From contig JAOTYL010000001.1 of the NCBI GenBank assembly GCA_029861865.1, forward strand, positions 258,066 through 322,065: a stretch of DNA of 64,000 bases. The letters run 5' to 3'. Shown piece after piece: positions 13,550 through 58,567 of this stretch; the first letter of the stretch is position 1; every line of letters starts with the position of its first letter. Under the pieces are notes generated by a model, which saw only the letters and a program-made list of their open reading frames with translations, did not search any database and was not told the DNA's origin. The stretch comes from Myxococcales bacterium (GTDB taxonomy: Bacteria > Myxococcota_A > Polyangia > Polyangiales > Houyiibacteriaceae). The translations under genes and the position numbers were made by a program.

Positions 13550-15628
13550 ATGCCCGGTTCCCGTTTGTTGTCTTCCCTGGTCTTGAGCATGGCGCTCGTA
13601 TTCGCCGTCGCAGGATGCGCTACCAACACTGAAGGCGAGTCTGGCTCGCTCTCGCTGGAGCTCGTCATCAATGGCGACGCCGAAATCGATGAAGTGCAGT
13701 GGTCGATCACCCGCGGAGGCGAGGAGATCAAGTCGGGCACCATCAACACCAGCGCCAACGGAGCGACGGCTTCAGTCCAAGCGTACGGGCTCGAGCCGGG
13801 GGATGGCTACACGATCACGCTGGAAGCGGTGTCTCCCGAAAAGGAGACGACCTGCAAGGGCTCGGCAATGTTCGACATCAAGGTCGGCGAGGTGACCGAA
13901 GTGGACGTCATGATGAACTGCAAGCCGCCACGGCGTTTCGGTGCCGTGCGAGTCAACGGCGAGCTCAACATCTGCCCGTACATCAACTGGGCCGATGTGT
14001 CGCCGTTGGAGACTTCGGTTGGCAACGATATTGATCTCTTCGCGATGGCGACCGACGACGAGGGCGACCCGATCTTCTACATGTGGAGCTCGGGCAGCGG
14101 CGTCATCGCCGACCCGATCGCCCAGTCGACCACCTATACTTGCACCGCGGTCGGTGACGACGCGATCACAATTCTCGTGACCGATGACGGCGGCACGCAC
14201 TGCATGGACATGCACACCGTCCCCATCGAATGCTTCGCGGGCGATGGGGAGCCCTGCGAGGGGGTGATCTGTGAAGACACCGGCAACGAGTGCACCACAG
14301 CGGCATGCAACTCAGGCACCGGCTTCTGCGAAACCTCGAACGTCGCCGACAACACCGACTGCGACGGTGGCGCCGGGATGTGCATGGGTGGTGAGTGCGT
14401 CCCCAAGGAGCTCTGCATGGATGTCGTCTGCGAAGACGACGGCAACGAGTGCACGGACGAGGCTTGCAATCCGGCGGACGGAATGTGTGAAACTTCGAAC
14501 AACAGCAACGCGTGCAACGACGACACCGGCACTTGCAGCGAAGGCGTTTGCGTGCCGAACCCAGAGTGCACGGTGGACGGGGACTGCCCGGCCACTGGCA
14601 ACGAATGCATCGACGCGGCGTGTAACGCGGGAACCTGCGGGACCTCGAACAACACCAATGCGTGCGACGGCGGAGACGGGACCTGCGACGCAGGCGTTTG
14701 CGTGCCGAACCCAGAGTGCGCGGTGGACGGGGACTGCCCGGCCACTGGCAACGAGTGCATCGACCCGGTGTGTAACGCGGGAACCTGTGAGACATCGAAC
14801 AACACCAACGCGTGCGACGACGACACCGGCACTTGCCAAGACGGCCAGTGCGTGACGACCGACCCGTGCGCAGGCGTCGTTTGTGACGACACGGGCAACG
14901 ACTGCACCGTGGCGGAGTGCAACCCCGCGAACGGTCTGTGCGAAGAGTCGAACGTGGCCGACGAAACCGCCTGCAACAATGACGGCGGCAAGTGCAACGC
15001 CGGCTTCTGCGTGCCGGCCCCGACGGCCAACGGCTTCATCAAGACGCTGGACCCCAACGCCGGTTTCAGCGTGAGCGCATCCAATACTCAAGATACGACG
15101 AACCTGCCGGATAGCTGGGGCGGCTTCACGCTCCCCCTGGTGATCACCCAAGACCTCGTAGGCCATATCCTGCAGTTTGGCTTCCAGACGAACGCGTCGA
15201 ACTTCGACAATACCAACAACTTCTACGACAACGTCGTGCTCAACGATCCCGCGGTCCTTTACACACAGGACTTCAATGGGCTCGACATTACAGCCAGTAC
15301 GGTAGGTGACGGATGGGCGTTTTTCGTCAATGTGTTTGACAGCGCCGGTACCCGTAAGTTTGGCTATGGCGGGGCCGCGCCCAACGGCACCGGCTTTATC
15401 TCGGGGATAGTTTCCGGACAAGGCGGTCTGGAGCAAGAACCCCAACAACTCAGCGTCTTCAGTGACTACAATTGCTGCGGTCTCGGCGGTACGAACGAAG
15501 AAGGTCACGGCAACGGAACTGACCTGGTCGAGACCAACGTTTTCCAAGAACGCACGATTGCAGCGGAGGATGTCGGCAAAACCTTCGAATTCATCTTCCA
15601 GGCCAAAGCCGGCAATATCGGACAGTGA
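13550..15628 (+). CDS. Cys-rich repeat lipoprotein with C-terminal permuted CBM-like module (P1)
   Basis: A 692-residue predicted lipoprotein: signal peptide with lipobox VAGC (Cys23), a beta-rich N-terminal region (25-225), about five Cys-rich units (230-490) of the form NECxDxxCNxGTCETSNNTNAC...GTCxxGxCVPxPEC, and a C-terminal ~205-residue module (from ANGFIKTLDPNAGFSVSA to the end). The last module is shared with the lipoproteins at 23563, 36170 and 40612. The first half of the module ends FYDNVVL and the second half begins YTQDFNGLD...GDGW, the reverse of the normal CBM4/9-like order. Likely a surface carbohydrate-binding protein; no catalytic motif. Its last 631 bp are almost the same as those of the 23563 gene. 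Confidence 0.85.
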   Translation: MPGSRLLSSLVLSMALVFAVAGCATNTEGESGSLSLELVINGDAEIDEVQWSITRGGEEIKSGTINTSANGATASVQAYGLEPGDGYTITLEAVSPEKETTCKGSAMFDIKVGEVTEVDVMMNCKPPRRFGAVRVNGELNICPYINWADVSPLETSVGNDIDLFAMATDDEGDPIFYMWSSGSGVIADPIAQSTTYTCTAVGDDAITILVTDDGGTHCMDMHTVPIECFAGDGEPCEGVICEDTGNECTTAACNSGTGFCETSNVADNTDCDGGAGMCMGGECVPKELCMDVVCEDDGNECTDEACNPADGMCETSNNSNACNDDTGTCSEGVCVPNPECTVDGDCPATGNECIDAACNAGTCGTSNNTNACDGGDGTCDAGVCVPNPECAVDGDCPATGNECIDPVCNAGTCETSNNTNACDDDTGTCQDGQCVTTDPCAGVVCDDTGNDCTVAECNPANGLCEESNVADETACNNDGGKCNAGFCVPAPTANGFIKTLDPNAGFSVSASNTQDTTNLPDSWGGFTLPLVITQDLVGHILQFGFQTNASNFDNTNNFYDNVVLNDPAVLYTQDFNGLDITASTVGDGWAFFVNVFDSAGTRKFGYGGAAPNGTGFISGIVSGQGGLEQEPQQLSVFSDYNCCGLGGTNEEGHGNGTDLVETNVFQERTIAAEDVGKTFEFIFQAKAGNIGQ
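14544..14843 (+). repeat. Tandem 150-bp repeat coding for a 50-residue Cys-rich unit
   Basis: Two adjacent 150-bp units (14544-14693, 14694-14843) encode nearly the same 50 residues beginning VCVPNPECTVDGDCPATGNE. Related units occur in the 23563-25830 gene. The repeat is coding and in frame. Confidence 0.8.
14998..15628 (+). repeat. Inverted duplication, copy 1 (C-terminal module of P1)
   Basis: This stretch is nearly the same as the reverse complement of 23563-24190 by direct reading, from GCCGGCTTCTGCGTGCCGG through the stop codon. It represents a recent duplication or gene conversion between the two lipoprotein genes. Confidence 0.8.
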
Positions 15629-21638: not shown

Positions 21639-23384
21639 TCAGGGGAAAAAGCCCGCGCCCTCATATACGGGGTCGTTGCAGGCGGAGCCCGCTGGCGTGT
21701 CGCACAGCGCGTAGAGCGGCATCCGGAACTCGTCCCACAGGCCCCAGCCATCGTCCGTCCCCTTCCAGCGCTCGTCGAAGGACGTGAAATCGATGATGAT
21801 CCGAGGCCCGCCGGGGGACCCTTCCCAGGAACGCATCAGGTCGAGGTACCACTTAGCGTTCACGGGATCCGCGGCATAGGTCTCGATTTCTTGGCTGGGC
21901 GCGGTCTGCCGCCACTTCCAGCCGGTCTCGCCGATGACGATCGGCAAAGACTCACCGATGGTGACGGTCGTGCCCGACGCATTGAGGTAGCTGTAGTCGT
22001 AGACGGCCTGGTAGTTGTCCTGGGCTTTGGCGAGCGCGGCATTCATCATGGCCTCGGCCCGTAGAGGACCGGCCGGGACCCCGAGCTGCTGCCAGTCCCA
22101 TTGCCTGTAGTTGATGAAGGGGTACGTGTGAATGGACACGAAGTCGATGAGCCGCAGGACCCCGTCTGGGCTTCTGCCAAAAAAGTTTGCGTAGAAGGTG
22201 TAGTCGTCGTCCGCCGTGACCGGCTGCGTCACGTTGTTTCGGGTCTCGGCAATATACCCCTCGAGGCAGTTCAACGGCATGAACGCCGCGAAGAACGACG
22301 TCTCGTTGCCGACGCTGACCGTGACGACATTGTCATAGGTGTTGGCCAGGCGGATGGCGTTGTCGACCTGATCGTCGTTGAATGCGCTACTGCACGACGC
22401 GGCCGCGGGGCCCGAGAGGCCCTCGAGAAAGAGTCCCTGCTGGAATCGCATTTCGGGGAAGTTCGCGGCTGCGAGCTGCAGCATCTTCTCGGCCCCGGAC
22501 ACCTCGTCTACGCCGAACAAACGCACCAGGTCGAAGCCGGCGGTTTGCAACAGGCCGAGGTCCTCGAGGATGTCGGCTTCGTTGGGGATCTCCCCGGCAT
22601 CCGGTCCACCGGCCCGGAACGCGCTGTAGTTGATCGCGTTGCCGGTCGTGTAGATGTCCGGCAGGGGCCGCAGCTCAGACGCCGCACATTCCACCTCGAA
22701 GCTCTTGGTCTTGTCGCACGGCGCGTCGCCGTCGCTGACCGTCACCGAGATCGTTTGGCTTCCGTTGGCGTTATCACACGTATAGATGGTCGACTGCGCG
22801 AATCGATCTAGGAAGCTTCCGCCTGTGGCGGTCAACGCTGTGGTAACCGTGTCGCCGTCGGCATCGCTCACCAAAACGGTTACTGCGGATCCTTCCGGAG
22901 GCACTTCATCTGGTACTGCGTTCAAGAAGTGCAGTCTTGGGCAGTTGTTGCCTGCGACCGTTTCGAATGTCGCATCGATATCGACGTTGCCGAGCGGGTC
23001 CACTCCGTCCCCATCACACGTCAACACCACGTTAACCTTGACCGTTTCGTTTACCACTACCGTGAAGTCCGCAGAACCCGTACACAAGGGATTGCCTGCG
23101 TCGTCGAACGCGGTCAGCGTGATGCTGCAGTCTCCCGCAGGTAAGAACATGATCGCTGCCCAGACGGGCGGTTCCTGTTCGTCATTGACGTTGAACTGGC
23201 CGCTCAGAGTGATTCCCGAGTCACAAGCGACGTCAAAACCCACTGCCGTGACGTCGGTGCTGCCAACAATCAGGTTGACTTGCACGCCACCGGAGGTGCC
23301 GGAGCTGCTAGTTTCACTTGCACACCCCGCAAGCGAAGTGGCCAAGAGCATGACCGCTGTGGTTAAGACCGATAGAGATCTCAT
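21639..23384 (-). CDS. Modular GH17 lipoprotein (N-terminal beta-sandwich module + GH17)
   Basis: A 581-residue lipoprotein: lipobox LAGC (Cys21); a beta-rich N-terminal module (about 34-235) that is closely similar to the one in the 23563-25830 protein; then a GH17 barrel (about 245-575) with acid/base Glu361 (VVTVSVGNETSFFAAF) and nucleophile Glu486 (PIVIGETGWKWRQ), plus DFVSIHTYPFINYRQWDW. The N-terminal module looks like two immunoglobulin/PKD-like units with conserved Cys. The enzyme probably attacks beta-1,3-glucan on the cell surface. First gene of a two-GH17 unit. Codon and base use are like its neighbours. Confidence 0.9.
   Translation of the reverse strand: MRSLSVLTTAVMLLATSLAGCASETSSSGTSGGVQVNLIVGSTDVTAVGFDVACDSGITLSGQFNVNDEQEPPVWAAIMFLPAGDCSITLTAFDDAGNPLCTGSADFTVVVNETVKVNVVLTCDGDGVDPLGNVDIDATFETVAGNNCPRLHFLNAVPDEVPPEGSAVTVLVSDADGDTVTTALTATGGSFLDRFAQSTIYTCDNANGSQTISVTVSDGDAPCDKTKSFEVECAASELRPLPDIYTTGNAINYSAFRAGGPDAGEIPNEADILEDLGLLQTAGFDLVRLFGVDEVSGAEKMLQLAAANFPEMRFQQGLFLEGLSGPAAASCSSAFNDDQVDNAIRLANTYDNVVTVSVGNETSFFAAFMPLNCLEGYIAETRNNVTQPVTADDDYTFYANFFGRSPDGVLRLIDFVSIHTYPFINYRQWDWQQLGVPAGPLRAEAMMNAALAKAQDNYQAVYDYSYLNASGTTVTIGESLPIVIGETGWKWRQTAPSQEIETYAADPVNAKWYLDLMRSWEGSPGGPRIIIDFTSFDERWKGTDDGWGLWDEFRMPLYALCDTPAGSACNDPVYEGAGFFP
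22690..23340 (-). repeat. Direct duplication of the N-terminal lipoprotein module, copy 1
   Basis: This coding stretch matches 25135-25790 on the same strand (for example both encode QFNVNDEQ[ED]PPVWAAIM and GSADFTVVVNETVKVN). The same module is joined to GH17 here and to CBM/Cys-rich/permuted modules in the other gene, a case of domain shuffling. Confidence 0.75.
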
Positions 23385-23562: not shown

Positions 23563-24190
23563 TCACTGTCCGATATTGCCGCCTTTGGCCTGGAAGGCGA
23601 ATTCGAAGGTTTTGCCGACATCCTCCGCTGCAATCGTGCGTTCTTGGAAAACGTTGGTCTCGACCAGGTCAGTTACGTTGCCGTGACCTTCTTCGTTGCC
23701 AGTGCCGAGGCCACAGCAGTTGTAGTCACTGTAGACGCTGAGTTGTTGGGGTTCTTGCCCCACACCGCCTTCACCAGTAACTAACGCACAGATCTGCGGT
23801 CCGTTGGGCGCAGCCCCGCCATAGCCAAACTTACGGGTACCGGCGCTGTCAAACACATTGACGAAGAACGTCCATCCGTCACCTATGACGGTGCCGTTGA
23901 TGTCGAGCCCATTGAAGTCCTGTGTGTAAAGGACCGCTGGATCGTTGAGCACGACGTTGTCGTAGAAGTTCCCGGAACTGTCGAAGTTCGACGCGTTCGT
24001 CTGGAAGCCAAACTGCAGGATATGGCCTACGAGGTCTTGGGTGATCACCAGGGGGAGCGTGAAGCCGCCCCAGCTATCCGGAAGGTTCGTCGTATCTTGA
24101 GTGTTGGATGCGCTCACGCTGAAACCGGCTAGGGGGTCCAGCGTCTTGATGAACGCGTTGGCCGTCGGGGCCGGCACGCAGAAGCCGGCG
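23563..24190 (-). repeat. Inverted duplication, copy 2 (C-terminal module of P2)
   Basis: Near-exact counterpart, on the other strand, of 14998-15628. The two copies face each other across about 8 kb that hold GH17, CBM9-like, ppc and two further GH17 genes. Confidence 0.8.
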
Positions 24191-25830
24191 CTACAGGTGC
24201 CGGTGTCGTTTTCGCACGCGTTGGTGTTGTTCGATGTCTCGCAGGTTCCTGCGTTGCACACCGGGTCGATACACTCGTTGCCAGTGGCCGGGCAGTCCCC
24301 ATCCACCGTGCATTCTGCGTTTGGCACGCAATTGCCCTGCCCGTCGCAGGTTCCGTTTCCGCCGTCGCACAGGTCGGTGTTGTTCGATGTCTCGCAGGTT
24401 CCTGCGTTGCACACCGGGTCGATACACTCGTTGCCGGTAGCCGGGCAGTCCGCGGGCACCGTGCATTCTGGGTTCGGGACGCAGAGCCCTTCGTTGCAAG
24501 TGCCGGCGCCGCCTGGCCCAAAGGTGACCGAGACGTTGTCGAAGTATGCATTGACTGCACAGCCCGGTTCTGCTCCGCAGATGGCCGCCAGCTGCAGTGT
24601 CACACCACCGCTGACGTCAGGGCCCGTGGTCGTCTCGAAGGAATAGGTGGTCCAAGTATCACTCGGGAAAAGTGGGTTGCCGCCGAGTATTTCACTACTG
24701 GACGTGCCCCCGCCGGCGATCTCGCCGAACAACTCGGCAAACACAACGCCGCCAGCGCCTTCGAGCGAGCCAAACAGGTCGAACGAAATGCTGATTGGGC
24801 TGTTGGGCGTCACAATCCCGATGCCAATGTTGGCCTGCTTGATGAGTGGGTTTGCCGGAGCACCAGCTGTGGCCACGTTGCCCGACCATGAACCACCATT
24901 GGCCTGCGCCATCGTCGCCTCACAGGTCCCATTGTTAGGACCAGTACAAAACTGCGTCCAACCATCGAGATTACCGGTTTCGAAATCGCCGTTGGTGGTC
25001 AGTTCAGGGCCCGCGTCACACGCGTTGGTGTTGTTCGAGGTTTCACACTCTCCGGTCTCCGGATTGCAAGAGTCGTCTGTGCACGGGTTGCCGTCGTCAC
25101 AGTCGACGTTCTCACAGAGGTTGACCCCAGGACACGTGACGTCGAAGCTCTTGGTCTTGTCACACGCCGGGTCGCCGTCGCTGGCTATTACGGAGACGGT
25201 TTGGGTTCCGTTGGCGTCATCACAGGTGTAGGTGGTCAACTGCGCAGATGGATCTACGAAGCTTCCGCCTGTGGCCGTCAGCGCCGTGGACACTGGATCG
25301 CCGTCCGCATCGCCCACCAAAACAGTGACTGTCGATCCTTCTGGGGGCACTTCATCGGGCACCACATTCAAGAAGTACAGTCGTGGACAGTTGTTGGCTG
25401 GGACCTCCTCAAATGTCGCATCGATATCGACAGTGCCGAGCAGCTCCTGTCCGTCCCCGAGACACGTCAACACGATGTTGACTTTGACCGTCTCGTTTAC
25501 CACTACCGTAAAGTCCGCAGAACCCGTACAGAGCGGAGCGCCTGCGTTGTCGAACGCGGTCAGCGTTACTTTGCAGGGTCCCTCAGGCAGGTCCATGATC
25601 GCAGCCCAGACGGGCGGATCCTGTTCGTCGTTGACATTGAACTGGCCGTTCAGGGTGACCCCCGATTCACAAACCACTTCGAAACTCACGGCCGTGACGT
25701 TGGTGTTTCCAATAATCAGGTTGACACTGACACTGCCGGTCTCGCTCGAGCCCCCGGTTTCGCCAGAACAGCCCGCAACAAATGCCGCCGCCGTCATGAC
25801 GAACGCGGCTAGTACAGATACTCGTTTCAT
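23563..25830 (-). CDS. Modular lipoprotein: N-terminal beta module, CBM4/9-like domain, Cys-rich repeats, permuted CBM-like module (P2)
   Basis: A 755-residue lipoprotein (lipobox VAGC, Cys21). Order: beta module shared with the GH17 at 21639 (34-235); a Cys-rich unit; a canonical CBM4/9-type jelly roll (about 275-430) from ELTTNGDFETGNLDGWTQF to AYFDNVSVTFG; Cys-rich repeats (435-545); and the C-terminal module (about 555-755) shared with P1, P3 and P4. The C-terminal module carries the FYDNVVL strand before the DFNGLD...GDGW strand, opposite to the canonical domain in this same protein. No catalytic site is seen. It is preceded by a perfect 21-bp palindrome (25875-25895) that matches the one in front of the GH1 operon, so it is likely part of the ROK regulon. 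Probable surface glucan-binding protein. Confidence 0.88.
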   Translation of the reverse strand: MKRVSVLAAFVMTAAAFVAGCSGETGGSSETGSVSVNLIIGNTNVTAVSFEVVCESGVTLNGQFNVNDEQDPPVWAAIMDLPEGPCKVTLTAFDNAGAPLCTGSADFTVVVNETVKVNIVLTCLGDGQELLGTVDIDATFEEVPANNCPRLYFLNVVPDEVPPEGSTVTVLVGDADGDPVSTALTATGGSFVDPSAQLTTYTCDDANGTQTVSVIASDGDPACDKTKSFDVTCPGVNLCENVDCDDGNPCTDDSCNPETGECETSNNTNACDAGPELTTNGDFETGNLDGWTQFCTGPNNGTCEATMAQANGGSWSGNVATAGAPANPLIKQANIGIGIVTPNSPISISFDLFGSLEGAGGVVFAELFGEIAGGGTSSSEILGGNPLFPSDTWTTYSFETTTGPDVSGGVTLQLAAICGAEPGCAVNAYFDNVSVTFGPGGAGTCNEGLCVPNPECTVPADCPATGNECIDPVCNAGTCETSNNTDLCDGGNGTCDGQGNCVPNAECTVDGDCPATGNECIDPVCNAGTCETSNNTNACENDTGTCSAGFCVPAPTANAFIKTLDPLAGFSVSASNTQDTTNLPDSWGGFTLPLVITQDLVGHILQFGFQTNASNFDSSGNFYDNVVLNDPAVLYTQDFNGLDINGTVIGDGWTFFVNVFDSAGTRKFGYGGAAPNGPQICALVTGEGGVGQEPQQLSVYSDYNCCGLGTGNEEGHGNVTDLVETNVFQERTIAAEDVGKTFEFAFQAKGGNIGQ
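25135..25790 (-). repeat. Direct duplication of the N-terminal lipoprotein module, copy 2
   Basis: Counterpart of 22690-23340 on the same strand; see the protein descriptions of the two lipoproteins for the module content. Confidence 0.75.
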
Positions 25831-36169: not shown

Positions 36170-36988
36170 ATGAAGAAGAAAGCACTATTTACGATTCTAT
36201 TTGCGACGCTAGCGCTCTATGGGTGCGGAGATGGCGAGAATGGTACGGGAGGCTCAGGCGGTACCGCAGCTACGGGCGGTAGCGGAGGCACGGGCGGTAG
36301 CGGCGGAGGCATAGGTGGTAGCGGCGGCGGCGCCGGTAGCGGCGGTACGGGCGGTATGCCGGCATGCGACAGCACAGCCAATGCGTTCATCAAGACGCTG
36401 GACCCGGACGCCGACTTCATGGTGAGCGCGTCCGACATTGTAGATACGACGGACCTTTCGACAGACTGGCAGAGGCTCACGCTCTCCCTCCAGATCACCG
36501 CAGACCCAGACCTCGTAGGCCACATCCTGCAGTTTGGCTTCCAGACGAACGCGTCGGACTTCGGAGATTCAGGTGTGTTTTACGACAACGTCGAGCTCGC
36601 CGATCCCGCGGTCGTTTATACACAGAACTTCAATAATCTCGACATCGGCGGCACCGTGATAGGTGACGACTGGCTGTATTTCGTCAATGTGTTTGACAGC
36701 GTCGGTACCCGTAAGTTTGGCTATAACGAAGGCCTCTTTGCGCCCAACGGCCCGCAGATCTCGGCGCTAGTTACCGGGGAGGGCGGTCCGACGCAAGAAC
36801 CCCAACAACTCAGCGTCTTCAGTGACTACAACTGCTGCCAGACGACGAACGAAGGGCACTTCAACGGCACCGACCTAGTCGAGACCAACGTTTTCCAAGA
36901 ACGCACGATTGTGGCGGGCGATGTCGGCACGACTTTTGTTTTCAGCGTCGACGCCAAACGCGGAAACATCAACCTAGGGTGTCCCTGA
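36170..36988 (+). CDS. Gly-rich linker lipoprotein with permuted CBM-like module (P3)
   Basis: A 272-residue lipoprotein: signal with YGCG lipobox (Cys19 region), a Gly-Gly-Ser/Thr linker of about 45 residues, and the shared C-terminal module (ANAFIKTLDPDADFMVSASD ... DAKRGNINLGCP). The first half ends VFYDNVELADPA and leads straight into VVYTQNFNNLDIGGTVIGDD. Ends with Cys-Pro. It is the shortest, simplest member of the four and so the cleanest view of the module. It is followed by a strong hairpin at 37011-37035 and then the phosphorylase gene. Confidence 0.85.
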   Translation: MKKKALFTILFATLALYGCGDGENGTGGSGGTAATGGSGGTGGSGGGIGGSGGGAGSGGTGGMPACDSTANAFIKTLDPDADFMVSASDIVDTTDLSTDWQRLTLSLQITADPDLVGHILQFGFQTNASDFGDSGVFYDNVELADPAVVYTQNFNNLDIGGTVIGDDWLYFVNVFDSVGTRKFGYNEGLFAPNGPQISALVTGEGGPTQEPQQLSVFSDYNCCQTTNEGHFNGTDLVETNVFQERTIVAGDVGTTFVFSVDAKRGNINLGCP

Positions 36989-37035: not shown

Positions 37036-37108
37036 GCCCGCGCCTTCTCATACGGTATTGCGCGTAGCGGCCGGGTTCGGGTGAGTATCCCGCCGGACAA
37101 CGGATTGT

Positions 37109-37124
37109 CTCGAGGCGCCTCGAG
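37109..37124. promoter_or_regulatory. Perfect 16-bp palindrome before the phosphorylase start
   Basis: CTCGAGGCGCCTCGAG is a perfect palindrome 19 bp upstream of the ATG at 37144. It lies inside the longer candidate frame that would begin at GTG 37081, and argues for the downstream start. Possible regulator site. Confidence 0.45.
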
Positions 37125-37143
37125 CCAGCGGAAACCATTAGAC

Positions 37144-40100
37144 ATGAATCGACCTTCCCTGAATGACGATGAGGTGTCCGGCGAGTTTCTGACTCTCGGA
37201 GGGGAGCGATACTACGCCATCCGCAACGTCGACAAGATGCCCCCGTTCTTCATCAACCTGGTCTCCGATTGCGACCACTGGTTGTTCATTTCCTCAACCG
37301 GGGGGCTAACCGCCGGTCGGGTGTCACCCGAGACCGCGCTTTTCCCCTACATCACGGTCGACAAGATTCACGAAAGCAATCCGCACACCGGTAGCAAGAC
37401 GCTGATCAGCACGGTGGCAAACGGGCAGCGGCACGACTGGGAACCGTTCAACAGGGCGCACGATGGTCGCTACTCGACCAGCCGGAACCTCTACAAGAAC
37501 ATCTTGGGCAACAAGCTGTGCTTTGAAGAGATCAACCATGACCTGCAGTTGGCGTTCCGTTACTGCTGGCTTACCAGCGACATCTACGGGTTCGTACGTC
37601 GATGCGAGATCGAGAATCTAGGCAAGCAAGATTGCAAGGTGGAGTTGATCGATGGCCTGCAGAACATTCTACCGGCCGGGACTCCGCGATTCGCCCAGAC
37701 AAACACAAGCAATTTGGTCGACGCGTACAAATGGAATGAGCTGGTCGAGGACAAGGGGCTCGGCTTATTTACACTCTATTCCGGAATCACCGACAGAGCC
37801 GAGCCTTGCGAGTCCCTGAAGGCTACGACCGTATTTTGCCTTGGCCTTCAGGGAGACAAGGTGCTGCTCTCGGCGACGCAGCTCGAACAGTTCCGCCGCG
37901 GCGCGTCCCTAACACAGGAGGTCCACAAGCGTGGCATCCGCGGGGCTTATTTCGTCCACGGGTCGCTCGATCTCGCACCGCAGACAGCCCAGCGCTGGCA
38001 GCTCGTGGCCGACATGGAGCAGAGTCAGGCGCAGGTGGTCAGCCTGCTCCATCAGCTCCGTGACCCCGCAGTGGTGGCGGAGGCGATCACCCAATCCGTA
38101 GCCAAGGGCTCGGACGAGCTGGCTTGCATCGTGGCTGGCGCGGACGCATTCCAGACGACTGCCGAGGAAAACGTGTCGGCACACCATTATGCGAACGTGC
38201 TCTTCAACGTGCTGCGCGGCGGTACCTTCGACGATCAGTATCGGGTGTCCTCACGGTATTTCCGGAGAACCATCGAGGCGTTCAATCGCGACGTGTACGT
38301 GCGCCATGAGGCAGCGCTCAACGCGTTGCCCGACAAGTTGCACTACTCGGACCTCCTGTCGACCATCAAGGATCTGGGTGACCCACAACTGGAGCGCCTG
38401 TGCCGTGAGTATCTGCCGATCACCTTTGGTCGCCGGCATGGTGACCCCAGCCGACCCTGGAACCAGTTTGCAATCAAGCTGAAAGACGACCGAGGCGACA
38501 AGCTGCTCTCCTATCAAGGCAACTGGCGTGACATTTTTCAGAACTGGGAGGCTCTGACTTTCAGCTTTCCGGAGTTTGTCGAAAACGTGATCGCCAAGTT
38601 CCTCAACGCTACCACAGTAGACGGTTACAACCCTTACCGAATAAGCAATGAAGGGTTCGACTGGGAAGTCGAAGAGCCTGACGACCCCTGGAGCTACATC
38701 GGCTATTGGGGCGATCACCAGATCATCTATCTTTTGAAGCTGCTGGAGCTTTCCAACCGGTTCCATCCGCAGCGCCTCGTTGCCTTGTTGCGCCAGCCTG
38801 TGTTCAGCTACGCCAATGTTCCTTACCGAATAAAGACGTTTGAAAGCGTGCTTGAGAATGCCAAGAGCACCGTCGTTTATGACTGGGAAGCAGCGCAGCG
38901 GATCGAGCAGCGAGTGGCTGACAAGGGCGCCGATGGCAAGTTGATTCTCGATGCCAGCGGTGAGGTATACCAGGTCAACCTGTTCGAGAAACTGTTGGTG
39001 CCGCTGCTGAGTAAGCTTGGCAACTTCGTGGTGGACGGAGGCATCTGGCTCAACACCCAACGTCCGGAGTGGAACGACGCCAACAACGCCCTCGTAGGTC
39101 ACGGGCTTTCCATGGTGACCCTGTACCACATGCGTCGATACGTCGGTTTCCTTCAACGTTTGCTCGCGCAAGAGTCGGGTTCAGTGAGCATGTCGCGAGA
39201 GGTAAGTGAATGGGTCGGTGAAACTGGCGCGGCGTTGAGCGAGGTTCGACCGAAGCTACAACGTGCGCCGGCGAGTGCCGAGATACGATACCGGTTGCTC
39301 GTTCGGCTCGGACGGGCAGCGTCCGACTACCGACAGACGGTCTACCGGCAAGAGGCGTTCTCCGGCATGGTGCAGCAACCAGTGTCACAGGTTAACGAGA
39401 TGCTAGACGACGCCCTGGCCGCGATCGACCACAGCATCCAGTGCAATAAGCGTGAGGATGGTATGTACCATGCCTACAACCTGCTCCATTTGAAATCGGA
39501 GGCGATCGAAGTCGAACGCCTTTACGCGATGCTCGAAGGCCAGGTTGCCGCACTTAGTTCTGGGGCCATTGCACCGGCACAAGCAGTCGATGTGCTCGAA
39601 ACATTGTTCGAGAGCGATATGTACAGGGCCGATGTGCGCACCTTCATGTTGTATCCGGACCGTCCGTTGCCAGGTTTTCTGGAGAAGAACCGTATCCCAG
39701 CCGAAGCGCTCGAATCGATTCCGCTCATCCAGAAGATGTTGGAGGAGGGCGACGGCAGCATCGTTCTGCGCGACGAAGACGGGTGCTACCGTTTCAACGC
39801 AGACTTACGCAACCTGAGCGATCTGATCGCTCGGCTGGACAATTTGACGCCAGTGCACGGCGATGAAGTTCAACACGCCCGCCAACCTTTGCTGGGGCTT
39901 TATGAGCGGGTTTTCAACCACAAAGCGTTTACCGGGCGTTCGGGCACCATGTTCGGTTTTGAGGGATTGGGATCTGTCTATTGGCACATGGTCTCCAAGT
40001 TGTTGCTGGCAGTACAGGAGAACTTTTTTGTCGCGCTCCAAGAGCATACAGACGAAGAAACCTGCCACCAGCTGGGTCGATTGTATTACCGCGTCCGCGA

Positions 40101-40593
40101 GGGCCTCGGATTCAACAAAACCCCTGCCGAATACGGTGCCTTCCCGACAGACCCCTACTCCAACACGCCCAAACACGCCGGCGCCCAGCAGCCGGGTATG
40201 ACCGGCCTGGTCAAAGAAGAAGTCTTGACCCGCTTCGGTGAGCTCGGCGTGCGCGTCAGCGAGGGTGCGGTGAACTTTGAATTGGGTTTGCTGCGGGTGC
40301 GCGAATTTCTCGCGAGTCCACGAACCTTTCGTTTTCTGGACGTGGATGGGCAGTGGCAGGAGCTCACGGTGCCAAAATCAGGGCTGGCATTCACCTGGTG
40401 TCAGGTCCCAATCGTGTATCGTCTGGATGATTCCGCCGAGCCGGCGGTGACTGTCACCCTGGATGATGGCAGTTGCCTGACCCCGAGCGGACTGACGCTG
40501 CCCACCGAGCTGAGCGCCGAGCTGTTCATGCGAAGTGGGCGTATTCGTCGAGTCGAGCTCGTCGTGAGAAGAAGCCAGTTGTTTACGGATTAA
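37144..40593 (+). CDS. GH94/GH149-type beta-glucan phosphorylase
   Basis: About 1149 residues, cytoplasmic (no signal). It belongs to the inverting phosphorylase clan of cellobiose phosphorylases: an N-terminal beta-sandwich (ALFPYITVDKIHESNPHTGS), a helical linker and an (alpha/alpha)6 barrel with the general acid Asp645 in PEWNDANNALVGHGLS. GH94 enzymes are usually near 800 residues; a length near 1100 and the 'EWNDANNALVG' motif fit GH149 beta-1,3-glucan phosphorylase better, and the neighbouring GH17/GH16 genes agree. It would release glucose-1-phosphate from beta-1,3-oligoglucans and save ATP. Start ATG 37144 (alternative GTG 37081); no strong ribosome site for either. Confidence 0.85.
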   Translation: MNRPSLNDDEVSGEFLTLGGERYYAIRNVDKMPPFFINLVSDCDHWLFISSTGGLTAGRVSPETALFPYITVDKIHESNPHTGSKTLISTVANGQRHDWEPFNRAHDGRYSTSRNLYKNILGNKLCFEEINHDLQLAFRYCWLTSDIYGFVRRCEIENLGKQDCKVELIDGLQNILPAGTPRFAQTNTSNLVDAYKWNELVEDKGLGLFTLYSGITDRAEPCESLKATTVFCLGLQGDKVLLSATQLEQFRRGASLTQEVHKRGIRGAYFVHGSLDLAPQTAQRWQLVADMEQSQAQVVSLLHQLRDPAVVAEAITQSVAKGSDELACIVAGADAFQTTAEENVSAHHYANVLFNVLRGGTFDDQYRVSSRYFRRTIEAFNRDVYVRHEAALNALPDKLHYSDLLSTIKDLGDPQLERLCREYLPITFGRRHGDPSRPWNQFAIKLKDDRGDKLLSYQGNWRDIFQNWEALTFSFPEFVENVIAKFLNATTVDGYNPYRISNEGFDWEVEEPDDPWSYIGYWGDHQIIYLLKLLELSNRFHPQRLVALLRQPVFSYANVPYRIKTFESVLENAKSTVVYDWEAAQRIEQRVADKGADGKLILDASGEVYQVNLFEKLLVPLLSKLGNFVVDGGIWLNTQRPEWNDANNALVGHGLSMVTLYHMRRYVGFLQRLLAQESGSVSMSREVSEWVGETGAALSEVRPKLQRAPASAEIRYRLLVRLGRAASDYRQTVYRQEAFSGMVQQPVSQVNEMLDDALAAIDHSIQCNKREDGMYHAYNLLHLKSEAIEVERLYAMLEGQVAALSSGAIAPAQAVDVLETLFESDMYRADVRTFMLYPDRPLPGFLEKNRIPAEALESIPLIQKMLEEGDGSIVLRDEDGCYRFNADLRNLSDLIARLDNLTPVHGDEVQHARQPLLGLYERVFNHKAFTGRSGTMFGFEGLGSVYWHMVSKLLLAVQENFFVALQEHTDEETCHQLGRLYYRVREGLGFNKTPAEYGAFPTDPYSNTPKHAGAQQPGMTGLVKEEVLTRFGELGVRVSEGAVNFELGLLRVREFLASPRTFRFLDVDGQWQELTVPKSGLAFTWCQVPIVYRLDDSAEPAVTVTLDDGSCLTPSGLTLPTELSAELFMRSGRIRRVELVVRRSQLFTD

Positions 40594-40611: not shown

Positions 40612-41802
40612 TTAACCGCCGCCGCCCACGCCGCCGTCGCCACCCGAACCAGCCGCACCGCCTGCACCACCGCTACCGCCCGTACCGCCGGTGCCACCCG
40701 TGCCTCCGGCGGGACACTCTTCGTCGTTGATGTTGCCGCGTTTGGCGTCGAAGCTGAATGTGATGATCGTGCCGACATCTCCCGCCACAATCGTGCGTTC
40801 TCGGAAAACGTTGGTCTCGACCACGTCGGTGCCGTTGCGGTGACCTTGGTCGGGATTGCCGCAGCACTCGTAGTCACTGTAGACGCTGAGTTGTTGGGGT
40901 TCTTGCTCCGGACCGCCTTGACCAGTAACTAGCGCCGAGATCTGCGGGCCGTTGGGCGCGAGGCCTGAGGGGCTGGTGTAGCCAAACTTAAAGATGCCGT
41001 CGCCGTCAAACACGTTGTTGAAGAACTTCCATTCGTCACCTATGACGGAGCCGCCGATATCGAGCTGATTGAAGTCTTGTTCGTACAACACTTCTCCGAC
41101 CATTCCGCCGGAGCCTCCAGTGCCGCCGCCGCTGCCGCCGGTGCCGCCCGTACCGCCGTCCACCGACTTGGTGACGAGGACGTTATCGTAGAAGTTCCCG
41201 GAATCTTCGAAGTTCGACGCGCTAGTCTGGAAGCCGACCTGCAGTAACTGGCCTTCGAGGAGCGGGTCGGTCAGATCCAATGAGATCGAGTAGCGGTCCC
41301 AGTCGACCGGTAAGTTCGTCGTGTCGACCGTCTCGAAGTTGGTCCGGTTGAAAGCGGCGTCCAGCGTCTGGATGAACGCGAGTGCCGTGCTGTCGCATCC
41401 CGGCATACCGCTACCGCCCATGCCTCCGGTACCGCCCGTGCCTGCGGTACCGCCCATGCCTCCGGTACCGCCCATGCCTCCGGTGCCGCCCGTGCACAGG
41501 TCGCCCGTCGCGTCTGGTACCGCTCCGGTTTGGCAGCTCATTTGGTTGGAGCAGTAGACGATCTGGCAGAGCTCGCCCTCGCCGCAGTCTGTCACCGTGT
41601 CGCACAGGCGGAGGCAGACTTTGACCGGTGTCACGAGGTCGCCAGGATTCAGGGGCTCGGGGCTGCCAGTGAAGGTGCAGATCTTCCCACTCCCACACTC
41701 GCCTGTGGAGCCCGCCGTCTCACACGGCTCACCCACCCCATCGCAGCCGACCAAATGGAGCAGACCAACACTAGCCGCGATCAAAATCGGCAAACCTCGC
41801 AT
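40612..41802 (-). CDS. Gly-rich lipoprotein with permuted CBM-like module and internal linker (P4)
   Basis: A 396-residue lipoprotein from ATG 41802 (MRGLPILIAASVGLLHLVGC, Cys20), a Cys-rich N-terminal region (about 25-105), a Gly-rich linker, and the shared module. Here the two halves of the module are split by a Gly/Ser linker of about 25 residues between FYDNVLVTKSVD and VLYEQDFNQLDIGG, and the protein ends in a further Gly-rich tail after DAKRGNINDEECPAGG. The linker at the internal joint supports the view that the halves are separable units in an order reverse to the normal fold. Convergent with the phosphorylase, 18 bp apart. Confidence 0.83.
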   Translation of the reverse strand: MRGLPILIAASVGLLHLVGCDGVGEPCETAGSTGECGSGKICTFTGSPEPLNPGDLVTPVKVCLRLCDTVTDCGEGELCQIVYCSNQMSCQTGAVPDATGDLCTGGTGGMGGTGGMGGTAGTGGTGGMGGSGMPGCDSTALAFIQTLDAAFNRTNFETVDTTNLPVDWDRYSISLDLTDPLLEGQLLQVGFQTSASNFEDSGNFYDNVLVTKSVDGGTGGTGGSGGGTGGSGGMVGEVLYEQDFNQLDIGGSVIGDEWKFFNNVFDGDGIFKFGYTSPSGLAPNGPQISALVTGQGGPEQEPQQLSVYSDYECCGNPDQGHRNGTDVVETNVFRERTIVAGDVGTIITFSFDAKRGNINDEECPAGGTGGTGGTGGSGGAGGAAGSGGDGGVGGGG

Positions 41803-41869
41803 TATGGTCCAACTAAACCACACGCGTTCGGAATCATCAATGCCGGCGCGACCGCCGGCCCCCCGTTGG

Positions 41870-54392: not shown

Positions 54393-56165
54393 ATGGCTCT
54401 TCCGATCGACCAGGACAGCTTCTACGCTAAGCCCGACGTCAGGAGGCGTGCAGTGAAGGGCGAGACTTACGATCAAAAGCTAGGCGGGGAAGACCGCATC
54501 GAGACTCGCAAGCGGGGAGTTTGGCTGCTTAAGAACCCCTCCACGAACAAAGGGCTGGCCTACACGAAAGAGGAGCGCAGAGAGCTCGGCCTTGACGGTC
54601 TGCTGCCAGACCAGGTGCTCGAGATCGAGCAGCAGGTCGAGCTAGAGCTGGAACATCTCCGCGTGAAGTCGACCGACCTCGAGAAGTACATCGGGCTGAC
54701 GAGCCTGCAAGACTTGAACGAGGTGCTTTTTTACCGCCTGCTGGTCGAGAACCTGCCAGAGCTATTGCCAATCGTTTATACGCCGACCGTCGGGTTGGCC
54801 TGCCAGCAGTTCAGCCACATTCTTCGGTCCGCGCGCGGCATCTGGATCACGCCGAACAACATCGACCACGTGCACGAGGTTCTCGAGAGCGCGCCCTTCC
54901 ACGACATCCGGCTGCTCGTCGTGACCGACAACGAGCGCATCCTGGGGCTCGGCGATCTCGGCGCCGGCGGCATGGGGATCCCGGTCGGCAAGCTAGCGCT
55001 TTACGTGGCGGGCGCCGGCATTCATCCGTCCAAGTGCCTTCCGGTGAGCCTCGACGTGGGCACCAACAACGAGGAGCTGTTGAACGACCCGCTCTACAAC
55101 GGCCACCGAGGGCGCCGACTGACGGGCCGGGCCTACTTCGACTTCGTCGAGCGCTTCGTCCAGGCCGTGCGCGACGTGTTTCCCCGCGCCATCATCCAGT
55201 GGGAGGACTTCGCCAAGACGCACTCGTTCCCACTTCTCGAGCGCTACCAGAAGCGCGTCCCAAGCTTCAACGATGACATCCAGGGCACCGCTGCGGTGGC
55301 CTTGGGCGGCATCTTTGCTGCGCTTCGGATCACGGGGCAGACGATCCGCGACCAGCGGATTCTCTTCATCGGAGCGGGCGGCGCTTGCATCGGCATCGCG
55401 CGGTTGACGTCGGCTGCCATGCGCCGGGCGGGAGCCACCGATCACGAGATCGAGCGCGCAATCGCTGCCTTCGACTCGAAGGGTCTCTTGCATGCCGAAC
55501 GCGAGATCGAGGAGCCCTTCAAACGGGAGTTCGCGCTCGGCAGGGAGAGCCTCGAGCACTACGGGCTCGCGCACGGGTCCGACACAACCCCGGTGGAGAT
55601 GATTCGCGCCTTCAAGCCGACCGTCCTGGTGGGCGCGACGGCCCAGCCGGGTGTGTTCACCCGCGAGATGATCGAGGAGATGGCGAAGCACGTCGATCGA
55701 CCCCTCATCCTGCCGCTCTCCAACCCGACCTCGAAATCGGAGTGCACTCCCAAAGACGCCCTCGAGTGGACCGGCGGCCGGGCGCTAGTGGCCACGGGCA
55801 GCCCGTACGACGACGTCGTTTGTGAAGGCAAGCGTCACGTGATCGGGCAGAGCAATAACGTCTTCATCTTCCCGGGCGTTGGCTTGGGAGCCATCGTCTC
55901 GAACGCGCGCGAAATCAACGACGAAATGTTCCTGATCGCCGCGCAGACCCTGGCGAGCTGTGTCACTGAAGAGTGCCTGACGCTCGGCGCCATCTTCCCG
56001 AGTGTGAACGATCTACGCGAAGTGAGCTTCAAGATCGCGTGTGCCGTCGTGCGCTCGGCCCGCGACGCGTATATCGGGCGTATGGTCCCCGACGACGAAG
56101 TCGAGGAAACGGTGCGAAGCGCGATTTGGTACCCGAGCTACATCCCGATCTTCGCCGAGGGCTAA
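54393..56165 (+). CDS. maeA: NAD(P)-dependent malic enzyme (malate dehydrogenase, decarboxylating)
   Basis: A 590-residue enzyme of the long form found in E. coli MaeA and eukaryotes. Motifs: LLPIVYTPTVGLACQQFS (catalytic Tyr), ERILGLGDLGAGGMGIPVGK, PSFNDDIQGTAAVALGG (metal-binding Asp), the Rossmann loop LFIGAGGACIGIARL and LPLSNPTSKSECTP. It decarboxylates malate to pyruvate with reduction of NAD(P)+. Start ATG 54393 (MALPIDQDSFYAKPDVRRRA); the frame to 54216 overlaps the lipoprotein gene. Whether NAD or NADP is used cannot be read safely. Confidence 0.95.
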   Translation: MALPIDQDSFYAKPDVRRRAVKGETYDQKLGGEDRIETRKRGVWLLKNPSTNKGLAYTKEERRELGLDGLLPDQVLEIEQQVELELEHLRVKSTDLEKYIGLTSLQDLNEVLFYRLLVENLPELLPIVYTPTVGLACQQFSHILRSARGIWITPNNIDHVHEVLESAPFHDIRLLVVTDNERILGLGDLGAGGMGIPVGKLALYVAGAGIHPSKCLPVSLDVGTNNEELLNDPLYNGHRGRRLTGRAYFDFVERFVQAVRDVFPRAIIQWEDFAKTHSFPLLERYQKRVPSFNDDIQGTAAVALGGIFAALRITGQTIRDQRILFIGAGGACIGIARLTSAAMRRAGATDHEIERAIAAFDSKGLLHAEREIEEPFKREFALGRESLEHYGLAHGSDTTPVEMIRAFKPTVLVGATAQPGVFTREMIEEMAKHVDRPLILPLSNPTSKSECTPKDALEWTGGRALVATGSPYDDVVCEGKRHVIGQSNNVFIFPGVGLGAIVSNAREINDEMFLIAAQTLASCVTEECLTLGAIFPSVNDLREVSFKIACAVVRSARDAYIGRMVPDDEVEETVRSAIWYPSYIPIFAEG

Positions 56166-56227
56166 CCGGAGACAAACCGCCGAGGGCTAGCTACCGGGGT
56201 GAGGCGTCCTACGGTGTCTGCTACGAC

Positions 56228-58567
56228 ATGGTCATGCTGAAAGCAGCTGGTGTGGTGAGCGCGATCGTTTTGGCCTTGGGGTGCAGTGACGGGGAGGACT
56301 CGAGCGGCATCGACGACGACCTGTTCTCACCGGCGGTATTTGCTGACCCCCCACTCGAGTTTGGTCCGCAGGCGCGGTGGTGGTGGCCAGGAGGGGCCGT
56401 AGATGATGCGACGCTGCGCGAGGAGTTGAGCCAGGTTGCGGAGCTGGGCTACAGCGCAGTCGAGATTCAGCCGTTCATGTCGGCCGTCACGAATGCCGAT
56501 CTGAGCAACGACTCCCGCATCCGTACCGTCGGCGATGCTTCATTCTTGGAGCGGCTACGCACCGCTGCATGTACCGCACAGGAGCTCGGGCTCTCCTGGG
56601 ACCTGACGCTCGGAAGCGGATGGTCCACCGGAGGCGTGGGCATCGACCAGGATGGGGCGCGCCAACTGATCTTGGCTGAGCTCACAATTAGCGGACCAAG
56701 GAGTTACGAAGGCCCGCTGCCCGAGGCGGAGCCCCCTACTTGGATCGACGCCACGAACAGCATCCTTCCTGCAATCGCCGGCTTCGACGAAAACGCCACC
56801 GTGGTGTCGGTCCTCGCGGCCGAAGTGCTCGAGGAACCTGAGAGCTCGCCCGTCATTCTCGGGGATGTGGTCGATTTGGGGTCGAGCGTGGCGGGTAACA
56901 TGTTGTCGTGGGAGGTCCCCGAGGGCACGCACCGCGTTTTCGCGATCTACGAGAATCGAACGCTGCATTTCCCGGTAGGCAACGCGTACCCCGGACCGCT
57001 CGAGGCAGCGCGAATCATCGATCATCTCGATCGCAGGGGCGTCGAGGCCTTCATCGATCGCGAGTTTGGAGCTTGGATCGACGCGGTTGCCGATTGTTCT
57101 CCACGCGCGGTATTCGTGGATAGCTTCGAGCTCGTCGGAGAGCTGCCTTGGACGACGGCGTTCGGCGCGAAGTTCGAGTCTACCCTCGGCTACGATATCA
57201 CGCCGATGCTTCCCTTCCTGTTCTTAGCGGGCGGCGAGTCCGAATACGCGACCCTAGCCGGGGCCGGGCCGCCTCGCTATCAGGCGACCGCTCAGCGCGG
57301 CCTCCGAGCGCGAGAAGACTACGAGGCGTTCCGTGGCGCCTTGTTTGTCGAAGAGCTCATCGACCCCCTTGGTGCGTGGCTGCAGGACCGAGGCATAGAG
57401 TTTCGGCTGCAAGCCCACGGTGGATACGCCGATGTCCTCGACGCTTATGGCATGGCCGACGTTCCCGAGTCCGAGGGACTCTACGGTGGCGGTTCCTACG
57501 ACTTTCTTCGTCTAGCGGCGTCGGCCGCGTAGGTAGGCGGCAAGCGCTTCGTGAGCAGCGAAACGTTTCCCACCGTTGGCGCGGCGCAGTTGACCGAGGA
57601 TGAGGCGCGACTGCTCATGGGGCGAGCCTTCAGTGCCGGCATCAATCGGCTCATGGTTCACGGTCATGCATATCCATATCTCCACCAGGACGGGCAGCGC
57701 TGGTTTCCTTTTCATCCGCTCGAAGACAGCGCGTTCAAAACTGGGCCGCTGGATCTGACGTTCGACATTCACCCAGACGCCGAGATCTGGGCCGCACTTC
57801 CATCCCTCAACCGGATGGCCGCGAGGCTCAGCTACGCCATGAGCCGTGGCGCCGCAGCGGCCGAGGTGGCTTGGCTCTACCCTGAGTGGGAGGCAGAGAA
57901 CTTCGTGAACTTCGGTGCCGACAGTGTCGAGCCGGGTGCATTCGAATCGGAGATCAGCAAGGCGCTGAGACGGGCGGGCTTTTCGTATGCGCGCTTGAGC
58001 CGGTCGGCGCTTGCGGCGTCCACCAGCGATGGCGGCCAGCTACGAGCCGGTCAGGCCTCCTTTCGTGCTCTCGTCATCGAGAACGTCGATGTCATAGACC
58101 CAGAAGTCCTTCGGGCGGTTCTCGACGCGGCCGACGCTGGAGTCGCCGTAGTTTGGATGGGAAGCATCCCAGAGCGCGCCGACGGCTTGGTTGACGCGAT
58201 CTCGCGAGACGCGATGGTCGAAGCGCTCGCGGATCGGGTGCAGTCGGATGTCCGGATGGTGTCGTCCGCGGACGAAATCCCCGCAGCGATCGCAGAGGCC
58301 GGCGTGCTCCCGGCACTGAGTCCGCTGAGCTCGGACGGACTCCGAATGTCGGTGGCGCGTCGCCAAGTGGTCGGCAGCGATCTCTATTTCCTCTTCAACG
58401 AAAGCTATCAGCAGCAGACCGATCAATTTCGCATTGAAGGGGAGTTTGCGGAGGCGCGTCTGTTGGACCCGGATACCGGCCAAGCCCTGGAAACGAACCT
58501 CGATGGCGATGTGCTGACGGTAACTTTGCCAGGCGCACGCGGTGTCGTGCTTTGGCTCGCGAGATAG
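56228..58567 (+). pseudogene. GH106-like glycosidase (alpha-L-rhamnosidase type) lipoprotein interrupted by an in-frame UAG
   Basis: One continuous frame of 779 codons with a single UAG at 57530-57532. Part one (56228-57532, 434 residues) has a lipoprotein signal (VLALGCSDGE), RWWWPGGAVDDATLREEL and ends YDFLRLAASAA. Part two carries on in the same frame with VGGKRFVSSETFPT, AGINRLMVHGHAYPY and a C-terminal beta domain; on its own it would start at 57551. The join reads AASAA-stop-VGGKRFVSSET, where related GH106-like proteins have 'SSAAHxxGKxxVxxES'. There is no frameshift, and both halves keep family-like sequence, so the change is recent, or a sequencing error, or the stop is read through. 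Signs of use in rhamnose-containing glycan breakdown are only family inference. Confidence 0.82.

What the first reader, a model, noticed from the sequence alone, without database searches (positions are those of the whole stretch)
23563..24190. Circularly permuted CBM4/9-like module shared by four lipoproteins (P1-P4)
Seen: in all four C-terminal modules a half ending in the strand FYDNV comes before a half beginning (Y)(T/E)Q(D/N)FN.LD...GD.W. In normal CBM4/9-like jelly rolls the 'NGDFE...GW' strand is first and 'YFDNVSV' last; the 23563-25830 protein itself carries one such normal domain (about residues 275-430). In P4 a Gly/Ser linker lies exactly at the joint between the halves and another after the second half. 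Inference: the module is a circular permutant, possibly of a new CBM family for beta-1,3-glucan.
Basis: partly seen in the sequence, partly recalled or inferred. Interest (0 to 1): 0.8.

Follow-up and report, generated by a model that had tools for sequence, protein, structure and literature searches.

The report
Circularly permuted glucan-locus domain, real
Four surface lipoproteins in a bacterial beta-1,3-glucan (laminarin-type) digestion locus end in a sugar-binding-like domain whose two halves are in reversed order, and sister species keep the unpermuted version of the same gene, so a natural circular permutation can be seen almost as it happened.

Summary
P1-P4 each end in a ~200-residue module made of a ~75-residue half ending in FYDNV followed by a ~120-residue half starting YTQDFN. 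A profile built from 62 homologues outside the genus, all in the opposite order, hits each of P1-P4 as two swapped segments that together cover the whole profile. In sister species the P3 gene at the same place is in the normal order, while P4 orthologues are permuted. AlphaFold2 folds permuted P3 and its normal-order orthologue as single confident domains (pTM 0.90, 0.89) with the same 11 strands in swapped order. Only the normal-order model matches CBM4/CBM16/CBM22 jelly rolls in the PDB. The break falls in a loop that in this genus carries two cysteines; P3 and P4 keep one at each new terminus. The module matches no Pfam or NCBIfam family, yet 45 of 53 loci outside the genus lie beside homologues of this locus's genes (GH149, GH16, GH17, GH1, GH2-like, transporters). 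Most likely it is a new beta-1,3-glucan-binding jelly-roll family with a genus-specific circular permutant copied between genes. Binding is inferred, not shown.

The parts
15023..15238 (+). P1 module, C-half (comes first)
   Evidence: outside-genus C-half HMM, 87 bits
15260..15622 (+). P1 module, N-half (comes second); gene stops after GNIGQ
   Evidence: outside-genus N-half HMM, 115 bits
13550..15628 (+). P1 lipoprotein gene (692 aa): lipobox, Ig/PKD-like region, Cys-rich repeats, permuted module
   Evidence: weak PKD hit
23950..24165 (-). P2 module, C-half (first)
   Evidence: outside-genus C-half HMM, 93 bits
23569..23928 (-). P2 module, N-half (second)
   Evidence: outside-genus N-half HMM, 110 bits
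23563..25830 (-). P2 lipoprotein gene (755 aa) with a normal-order CBM4/9-like domain (residues 276-408), Cys-rich repeats and the permuted module
36371..36598 (+). P3 module, C-half (first), preceded by PACDST with the N-terminal Cys
36617..36973 (+). P3 module, N-half (second), followed by NLGCP with the C-terminal Cys
36170..36988 (+). P3 lipoprotein gene (272 aa): lipobox, Gly-rich tether, permuted module; the sister-species orthologue is in normal order
   Evidence: AF2 model
41173..41391 (-). P4 module, C-half (first)
40726..41085 (-). P4 module, N-half (second); a Gly/Ser linker separates the halves
40612..41823 (-). P4 lipoprotein gene (403 aa); orthologues in three other genomes are also permuted
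37081..40593 (+). GH149 beta-1,3-oligosaccharide phosphorylase between P3 and P4 (locus context)
   Evidence: full-length match to PDB 6hq6, 1081 bits
21639..23384 (-). GH17 lipoprotein whose relatives carry the normal-order module in the same chain; here without the module

Best explanation
P1-P4 carry a true natural circular permutant of a beta-sandwich (jelly-roll) domain. The ancestral, widespread order is N-half then C-half. In the permutant the chain is opened in the hairpin loop between the halves (after FDAKRGNI, before STAxAFIKTLDP), and the old termini are joined by about six residues, or by a 27-residue Gly-rich linker in P4. Shown here: both orders exist, halves are complete, orthologous genes differ in order, and models of both orders predict the same fold. 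Inferred: the domain binds beta-1,3-glucan or its oligosaccharides at the cell surface and feeds the GH16/GH17/GH149 pathway; the Cys pair of the old loop staples the new termini in P3 and P4; the permuted order arose in the P4 lineage by duplication and truncation of a tandem array, then was copied to P1-P3 in this species.
For: Swapped two-segment match of a normal-order profile covering positions 1-191 on all four proteins. 72 normal-order copies and seven N-C-N-C tandem proteins in many phyla against three permuted P4 orthologues. P3 orthologue in normal order in G169 between the same neighbours (GH2-like 85%, orf201 75%, orf240 67%, GH149 80% identity), also normal in CP070792 and, as far as its contig runs, in G293; P4 permuted in all three. 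AF2 single-domain models with 11 corresponding strands. CBM4/16/22 hits only for the normal order. 45 to 53 of 57 near-invariant positions kept in permuted modules. dN/dS 0.13-0.34 in permuted P4 orthologues, so both halves are under selection. Neighbourhood of beta-1,3-glucan genes in 45 of 53 outside loci, while GH149 is single-copy here and rare in relatives.
Against: No coordinates were available, so no permutation-aware superposition was run. The P3 alignment included half-length rows and C1-N2 pieces of tandem proteins, which could favour a compact model. P1 and P2 lack the C-terminal Cys, so the staple is not general. No binding data. The C-half tree does not resolve where P1-P3 come from. 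A tandem intermediate was not found inside the genus.
Confidence: 0.9

Rival explanations
1. The module is a circular permutant but does not bind beta-1,3-glucan: it is a structural, anchoring or spacer domain, or binds another ligand in these loci.
For: Many copies are small stand-alone secreted proteins with no catalytic domain; no solved relative by sequence; one copy sits in a di-haem oxidoreductase protein (L041).
Against: Fused to GH16 and GH17 in several proteins and beside GH149/GH16/GH17 in most loci; normal-order fold matches glycan-binding CBM4, CBM16 and CBM22.
Confidence: 0.2
2. The two halves are leftovers of two neighbouring domains of a former tandem array and complete themselves only between molecules (domain-swapped dimer or chain) rather than within one chain.
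For: Tandem N-C-N-C proteins contain exactly the C1-N2 arrangement, and P4 has a long flexible linker between the halves.
Against: P3 alone is predicted as one compact domain; in P3 the joint is only six residues and a Cys is kept at each new end.
Confidence: 0.06
3. Assembly or annotation artefact.
For: Many relatives are metagenome-assembled genomes (titles).
Against: Four independent copies lie in one 736-kb contig, and three other assemblies show the permuted P4 orthologue; open frames without stops.
Confidence: 0.01
4. P3 was permuted independently in this species rather than overwritten by a permuted copy from P4.
For: The N-halves of P1-P4 group with the N-half of normal-order P3 orthologues (81/76 support).
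Against: Requires two permutations at the same loop; synonymous divergence among P1-P4 (0.08-0.60) is below that between P4 C-half orthologues (0.76), as expected of later copying; DNA similarity of P3 and P4 breaks at the joint (81% N-half, 69% C-half).
Confidence: 0.25

Closest known systems
Fibrobacter succinogenes 1,3-1,4-beta-D-glucanase, a natural circularly permuted jelly-roll (J Mol Biol 2003;330:607, cited in PMC2395249)
   Same: Natural circular permutation of a beta-sandwich protein in glucan degradation.
   Different: That is a GH16 catalytic domain; here it is a non-catalytic module, both orders occur within one genus, and one orthologous gene differs in order.
CBM4 / CBM16 / CBM22 beta-sandwich modules (Pfam CBM_4_9)
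   Same: Normal-order model matches them in fold, Foldseek probability 1.00, E 3e-5 to 7e-4, TM up to 0.64 on the target.
   Different: No sequence match; about 190 rather than about 150 residues; the permuted form has a different strand order.
Engineered circularly permuted CBM21 (PMC3511584)
   Same: A carbohydrate-binding beta-sandwich that tolerates new termini.
   Different: Made in the laboratory, another family; reported with altered affinity and dimerisation, which is worth testing here.
Surface glycan-binding lipoproteins of polysaccharide utilisation loci (general knowledge)
   Same: Lipoproteins with binding modules encoded beside the enzymes of one glycan.
   Different: No SusC/D-type genes were looked for here; transporters in the window are MFS type and a solute-binding protein.

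Membership tests
Natural circular permutant | Homologues exist with the opposite order of the same segments | tested here: met
   72 normal-order copies, three permuted orthologues, P1-P4 permuted
Natural circular permutant | Both segments complete, together covering the whole domain | tested here: met
   Profile 112-191 then 1-115 of 191 positions on P1-P4
Natural circular permutant | The permuted chain forms one domain of the same fold | tested here: met
   By prediction only: pTM 0.90 and 0.89, 11 strands in corresponding order; no superposition possible
Natural circular permutant | Original termini lie close together | tested here: inconclusive
   Indirect: joints of about six residues, short joints in tandem proteins and insertion of the module inside a GH16 chain (L096); distances not available
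Pfam CBM_4_9 (CBM4, 9, 16, 22) | Sequence match to the Pfam model | tested here: not met
   0 of 70 normal-order members and none of the permuted modules; hhalign probability 5% to P2's CBM4/9 domain
CBM4/16/22-like beta-sandwich fold | Structural similarity in sequential order | tested here: met
   For the normal-order model; not for the permuted model, as expected of a permutant
Carbohydrate-binding module (CAZy sense) | Demonstrated binding to a carbohydrate by at least one member | not testable with these tools
   No binding data found; CAZy/dbCAN models not on hand
Beta-1,3-glucan utilisation locus component | Conserved neighbourhood with beta-1,3-glucan enzymes | tested here: met
   45 of 53 outside loci carry homologues of the locus genes; GH149 in 24, GH16 in 22; GH149 identity

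The most novel reading that the evidence does not exclude
A new family of beta-1,3-glucan-binding jelly-roll modules, present in the laminarin-type loci of several phyla, in which one bacterial genus evolved circular permutants closed by a disulfide at the new termini and exchanges half-modules between neighbouring genes, so that one orthologous gene is normal in one species and permuted in the next.
Probability: 0.45. Interest if true: 0.72.

Novelty: new variant of a known kind. Interest (0 to 1): 0.6.

Why it matters
Natural circular permutants are usually recognised only by structure between remote homologues, and the route by which they arise is debated (PMC2395249 lists several models). 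Here both orders sit side by side at roughly 45-65% identity per half in one genus, at orthologous positions, with tandem arrays in relatives as possible intermediates, so steps and consequences (stability, binding, selection) can be tested on natural pairs. It also points to an unnamed domain family tied to beta-1,3-glucan use across phyla.

Tried and rejected
Two independent domains: rejected by the AF2 model and by complete circular coverage. Chance resemblance: rejected by shuffles. All permuted modules as one clade: rejected for N-halves (AU p 1.6e-4) but not for C-halves (p 0.14). P4 N-halves as one orthologous clade: rejected (AU p 5.6e-11), which revealed the half-swap in this species' P4. 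Pseudogene remnants of missing halves in the window: none above noise. Led nowhere: PDB sequence searches, plasmid collection, viral contigs, first genome-contig scan with the permuted alignment (succeeded with the normal-order alignment), genome searches centred on other phyla ('of' takes genome handles only), literature for this domain or a permuted natural CBM.

Full report
WHAT WAS CHECKED. P1 (13550-15628 +), P2 (23563-25830 -), P3 (36170-36988 +) and P4 (40612-41823 -) were translated. Their last ~200 residues align over their full length: AFIKTLDP...FYDNV (C-half, ~75 aa) and then YTQDFN...AKxGNI (N-half, ~120 aa). No Pfam or NCBIfam model covers the module and no PDB sequence resembles it.

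OPPOSITE ORDER EXISTS. Whole-genome searches found the module only in the window's own genus in a sample of 284 genomes of the phylum, and in seven of 34 genomes of the family, all of that genus. There both orders occur. A collection scan with a normal-order alignment returned 64 loci, titled as Myxococcota, Eisenbacteria, Krumholzibacteria, Latescibacterota, Phycisphaerae, Acidobacteria, Gemmatimonadota, Gammaproteobacteria and others. Separate HMMs for the halves found 72 normal-order copies, seven N-C-N-C tandem proteins and three permuted ones, the last all P4 orthologues. The scan used only two peptide patterns, so the census is partial. A profile from 62 modules outside the genus, all in normal order, matches each of P1-P4 in two pieces, about 112-191 first and 1-115 second, E 1e-24 to 1e-32; shuffles reach 9 bits.

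ORTHOLOGOUS GENES IN DIFFERENT ORDER. In G169 the gene between orf240 and the GH149 gene, i.e. the P3 position, has normal order; its neighbours are 67-85% identical to the window's. CP070792 has normal P3 and permuted P4 on either side of a GH149 gene 83% identical to the window's; G293 has a normal P3 N-half at a contig end and a permuted P4. So P4 is permuted in four genomes, but P3 only in the window's species.

STRUCTURE. AF2 gave P3 pLDDT 93.5, pTM 0.90 and the normal-order orthologue pLDDT 91.7, pTM 0.89. Strand lengths correspond one to one after the swap (three-residue strand 87-89 of P3 aside): C-half 10, 9, 8, 11, 9 in P3 against 10, 9, 9, 11, 7; N-half 7, 10, 5, 5, 11, 10 against 7, 9, 5, 5, 10, 11. 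Foldseek, which aligns in sequence order, finds CBM4, CBM16 and CBM22 for the normal model (probability 1.00, E from 3e-5) and nothing at E <= 0.001 for the permuted one. That contrast is what a permutant of such a fold should give. Caveats: coordinates could not be superposed, and the P3 alignment was built from permuted proteins, C1-N2 pieces of tandem proteins and half-length rows.

THE BREAK POINT. In most phyla the halves are joined by two residues, so the flanking strands look like a hairpin. In this genus that loop is longer and usually carries two cysteines (for example GNINDPSDPKCTAPNVCEST, GNINDPDDQLCPCDST). The permutants are opened in this loop, and P3, P4 and the P4 orthologues whose ends can be read keep one Cys on each side (PACDST...GNINLGCP in P3); P1 and P2 do not. 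A disulfide across the new ends is a plausible inference.

HOW IT SPREAD. In N-half trees P4 of this species groups with P1-P3 and with the normal P3 orthologues, not with P4 orthologues (AU p 5.6e-11); its C-half groups, weakly, with P4 orthologues. P3 and P4 of this species are 81% identical in DNA over the N-half but 69% over the C-half. Synonymous divergence among P1-P4 (0.08-0.60) is below that of P4 of this species and G169 (0.76 C-half, 1.70 N-half), while dN/dS is higher (0.48-0.86 against 0.13-0.34 among P4 orthologues). The simplest account is a permutation in the ancestral P4, half-module exchange with P3, and later copying to P1-P3 with fast divergence. This is inference, and the C-half data do not exclude other histories.

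FUNCTION. The 1,170-aa enzyme between P3 and P4 is a GH149 beta-1,3-oligosaccharide phosphorylase (6hq6, 1081 bits; the GH149 label for 6hq6 is from general knowledge). The window also has GH17 genes, GH16, GH1, a GH2-like protein, a ROK regulator and sugar transporters. Relatives carry the module in the same chain as GH17 (L035, L082) and GH16 (L088-L092; L096, inside the GH16 chain). Of 53 loci outside the genus, 45 carry homologues of these genes, GH149 in 24, although GH149 is single-copy in this genome and present in 4 of 38 relatives. Several of these gene families are broad, so GH149 is the most telling neighbour. A role in beta-1,3-glucan capture at the cell surface is therefore the best explanation (about 75-80% likely), with binding itself untested. 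The 0.9 confidence given for the best explanation refers to the circular permutation and shared fold; the inferred steps are less certain as stated.

VERDICT. Circular permutation is a known phenomenon and the fold is of a known kind, so this is a new variant. Its special value is that both states occur at one gene in sister species, in an unnamed domain family linked to beta-1,3-glucan use across phyla.

Noticed in passing
window 37081-40593: GH149-type beta-1,3-oligosaccharide phosphorylase with no Pfam hit at all, although it matches PDB 6hq6 over its full length.
   Followed up: yes
window 21639-23384 and 23563-25830: P2 and the adjacent GH17 lipoprotein share an N-terminal tail 82.6% identical in DNA over 587 bases; in relatives the GH17 chain itself carries the normal-order module, so a gene duplication and split is likely.
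   Followed up: partly
L097 2927-3457: A domain like P2's CBM4/9 domain (52% identity) is nested inside the GH16 coding sequence of a sister species; in L096 the new module is itself nested inside a GH16 chain.
   Followed up: no
L067 (CP070792): Record titled Gemmatimonadota has a GH149 gene 83% identical to the window's and the same P3-GH149-P4 order, so the title may be wrong; part of its P4 orthologue is masked.
   Followed up: partly
window 13550-15628 and 23563-25830, middle parts: Cys-rich repeats (CPATGNECIDPVCNAGTCETSNNTNAC); P2 has a borderline Pfam hit to the Dictyostelium CTDC repeat; repeat number differs between P1 and P2.
   Followed up: no
window P1-P4 N-halves: A vicinal Cys pair (SDYxCC) replaces the NN seen in most phyla; it also occurs in some gammaproteobacterial copies.
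   Followed up: no
window 55973-58567: A GH106-like rhamnosidase appears to be two adjacent open frames in the same reading frame, separated by a stop; possible broken gene or sequence error.
   Followed up: no
window P1-P4: dN/dS among the four paralogues (0.48-0.86) is well above that among P4 orthologues (0.13-0.34), suggesting relaxed or diversifying evolution after copying.
   Followed up: partly
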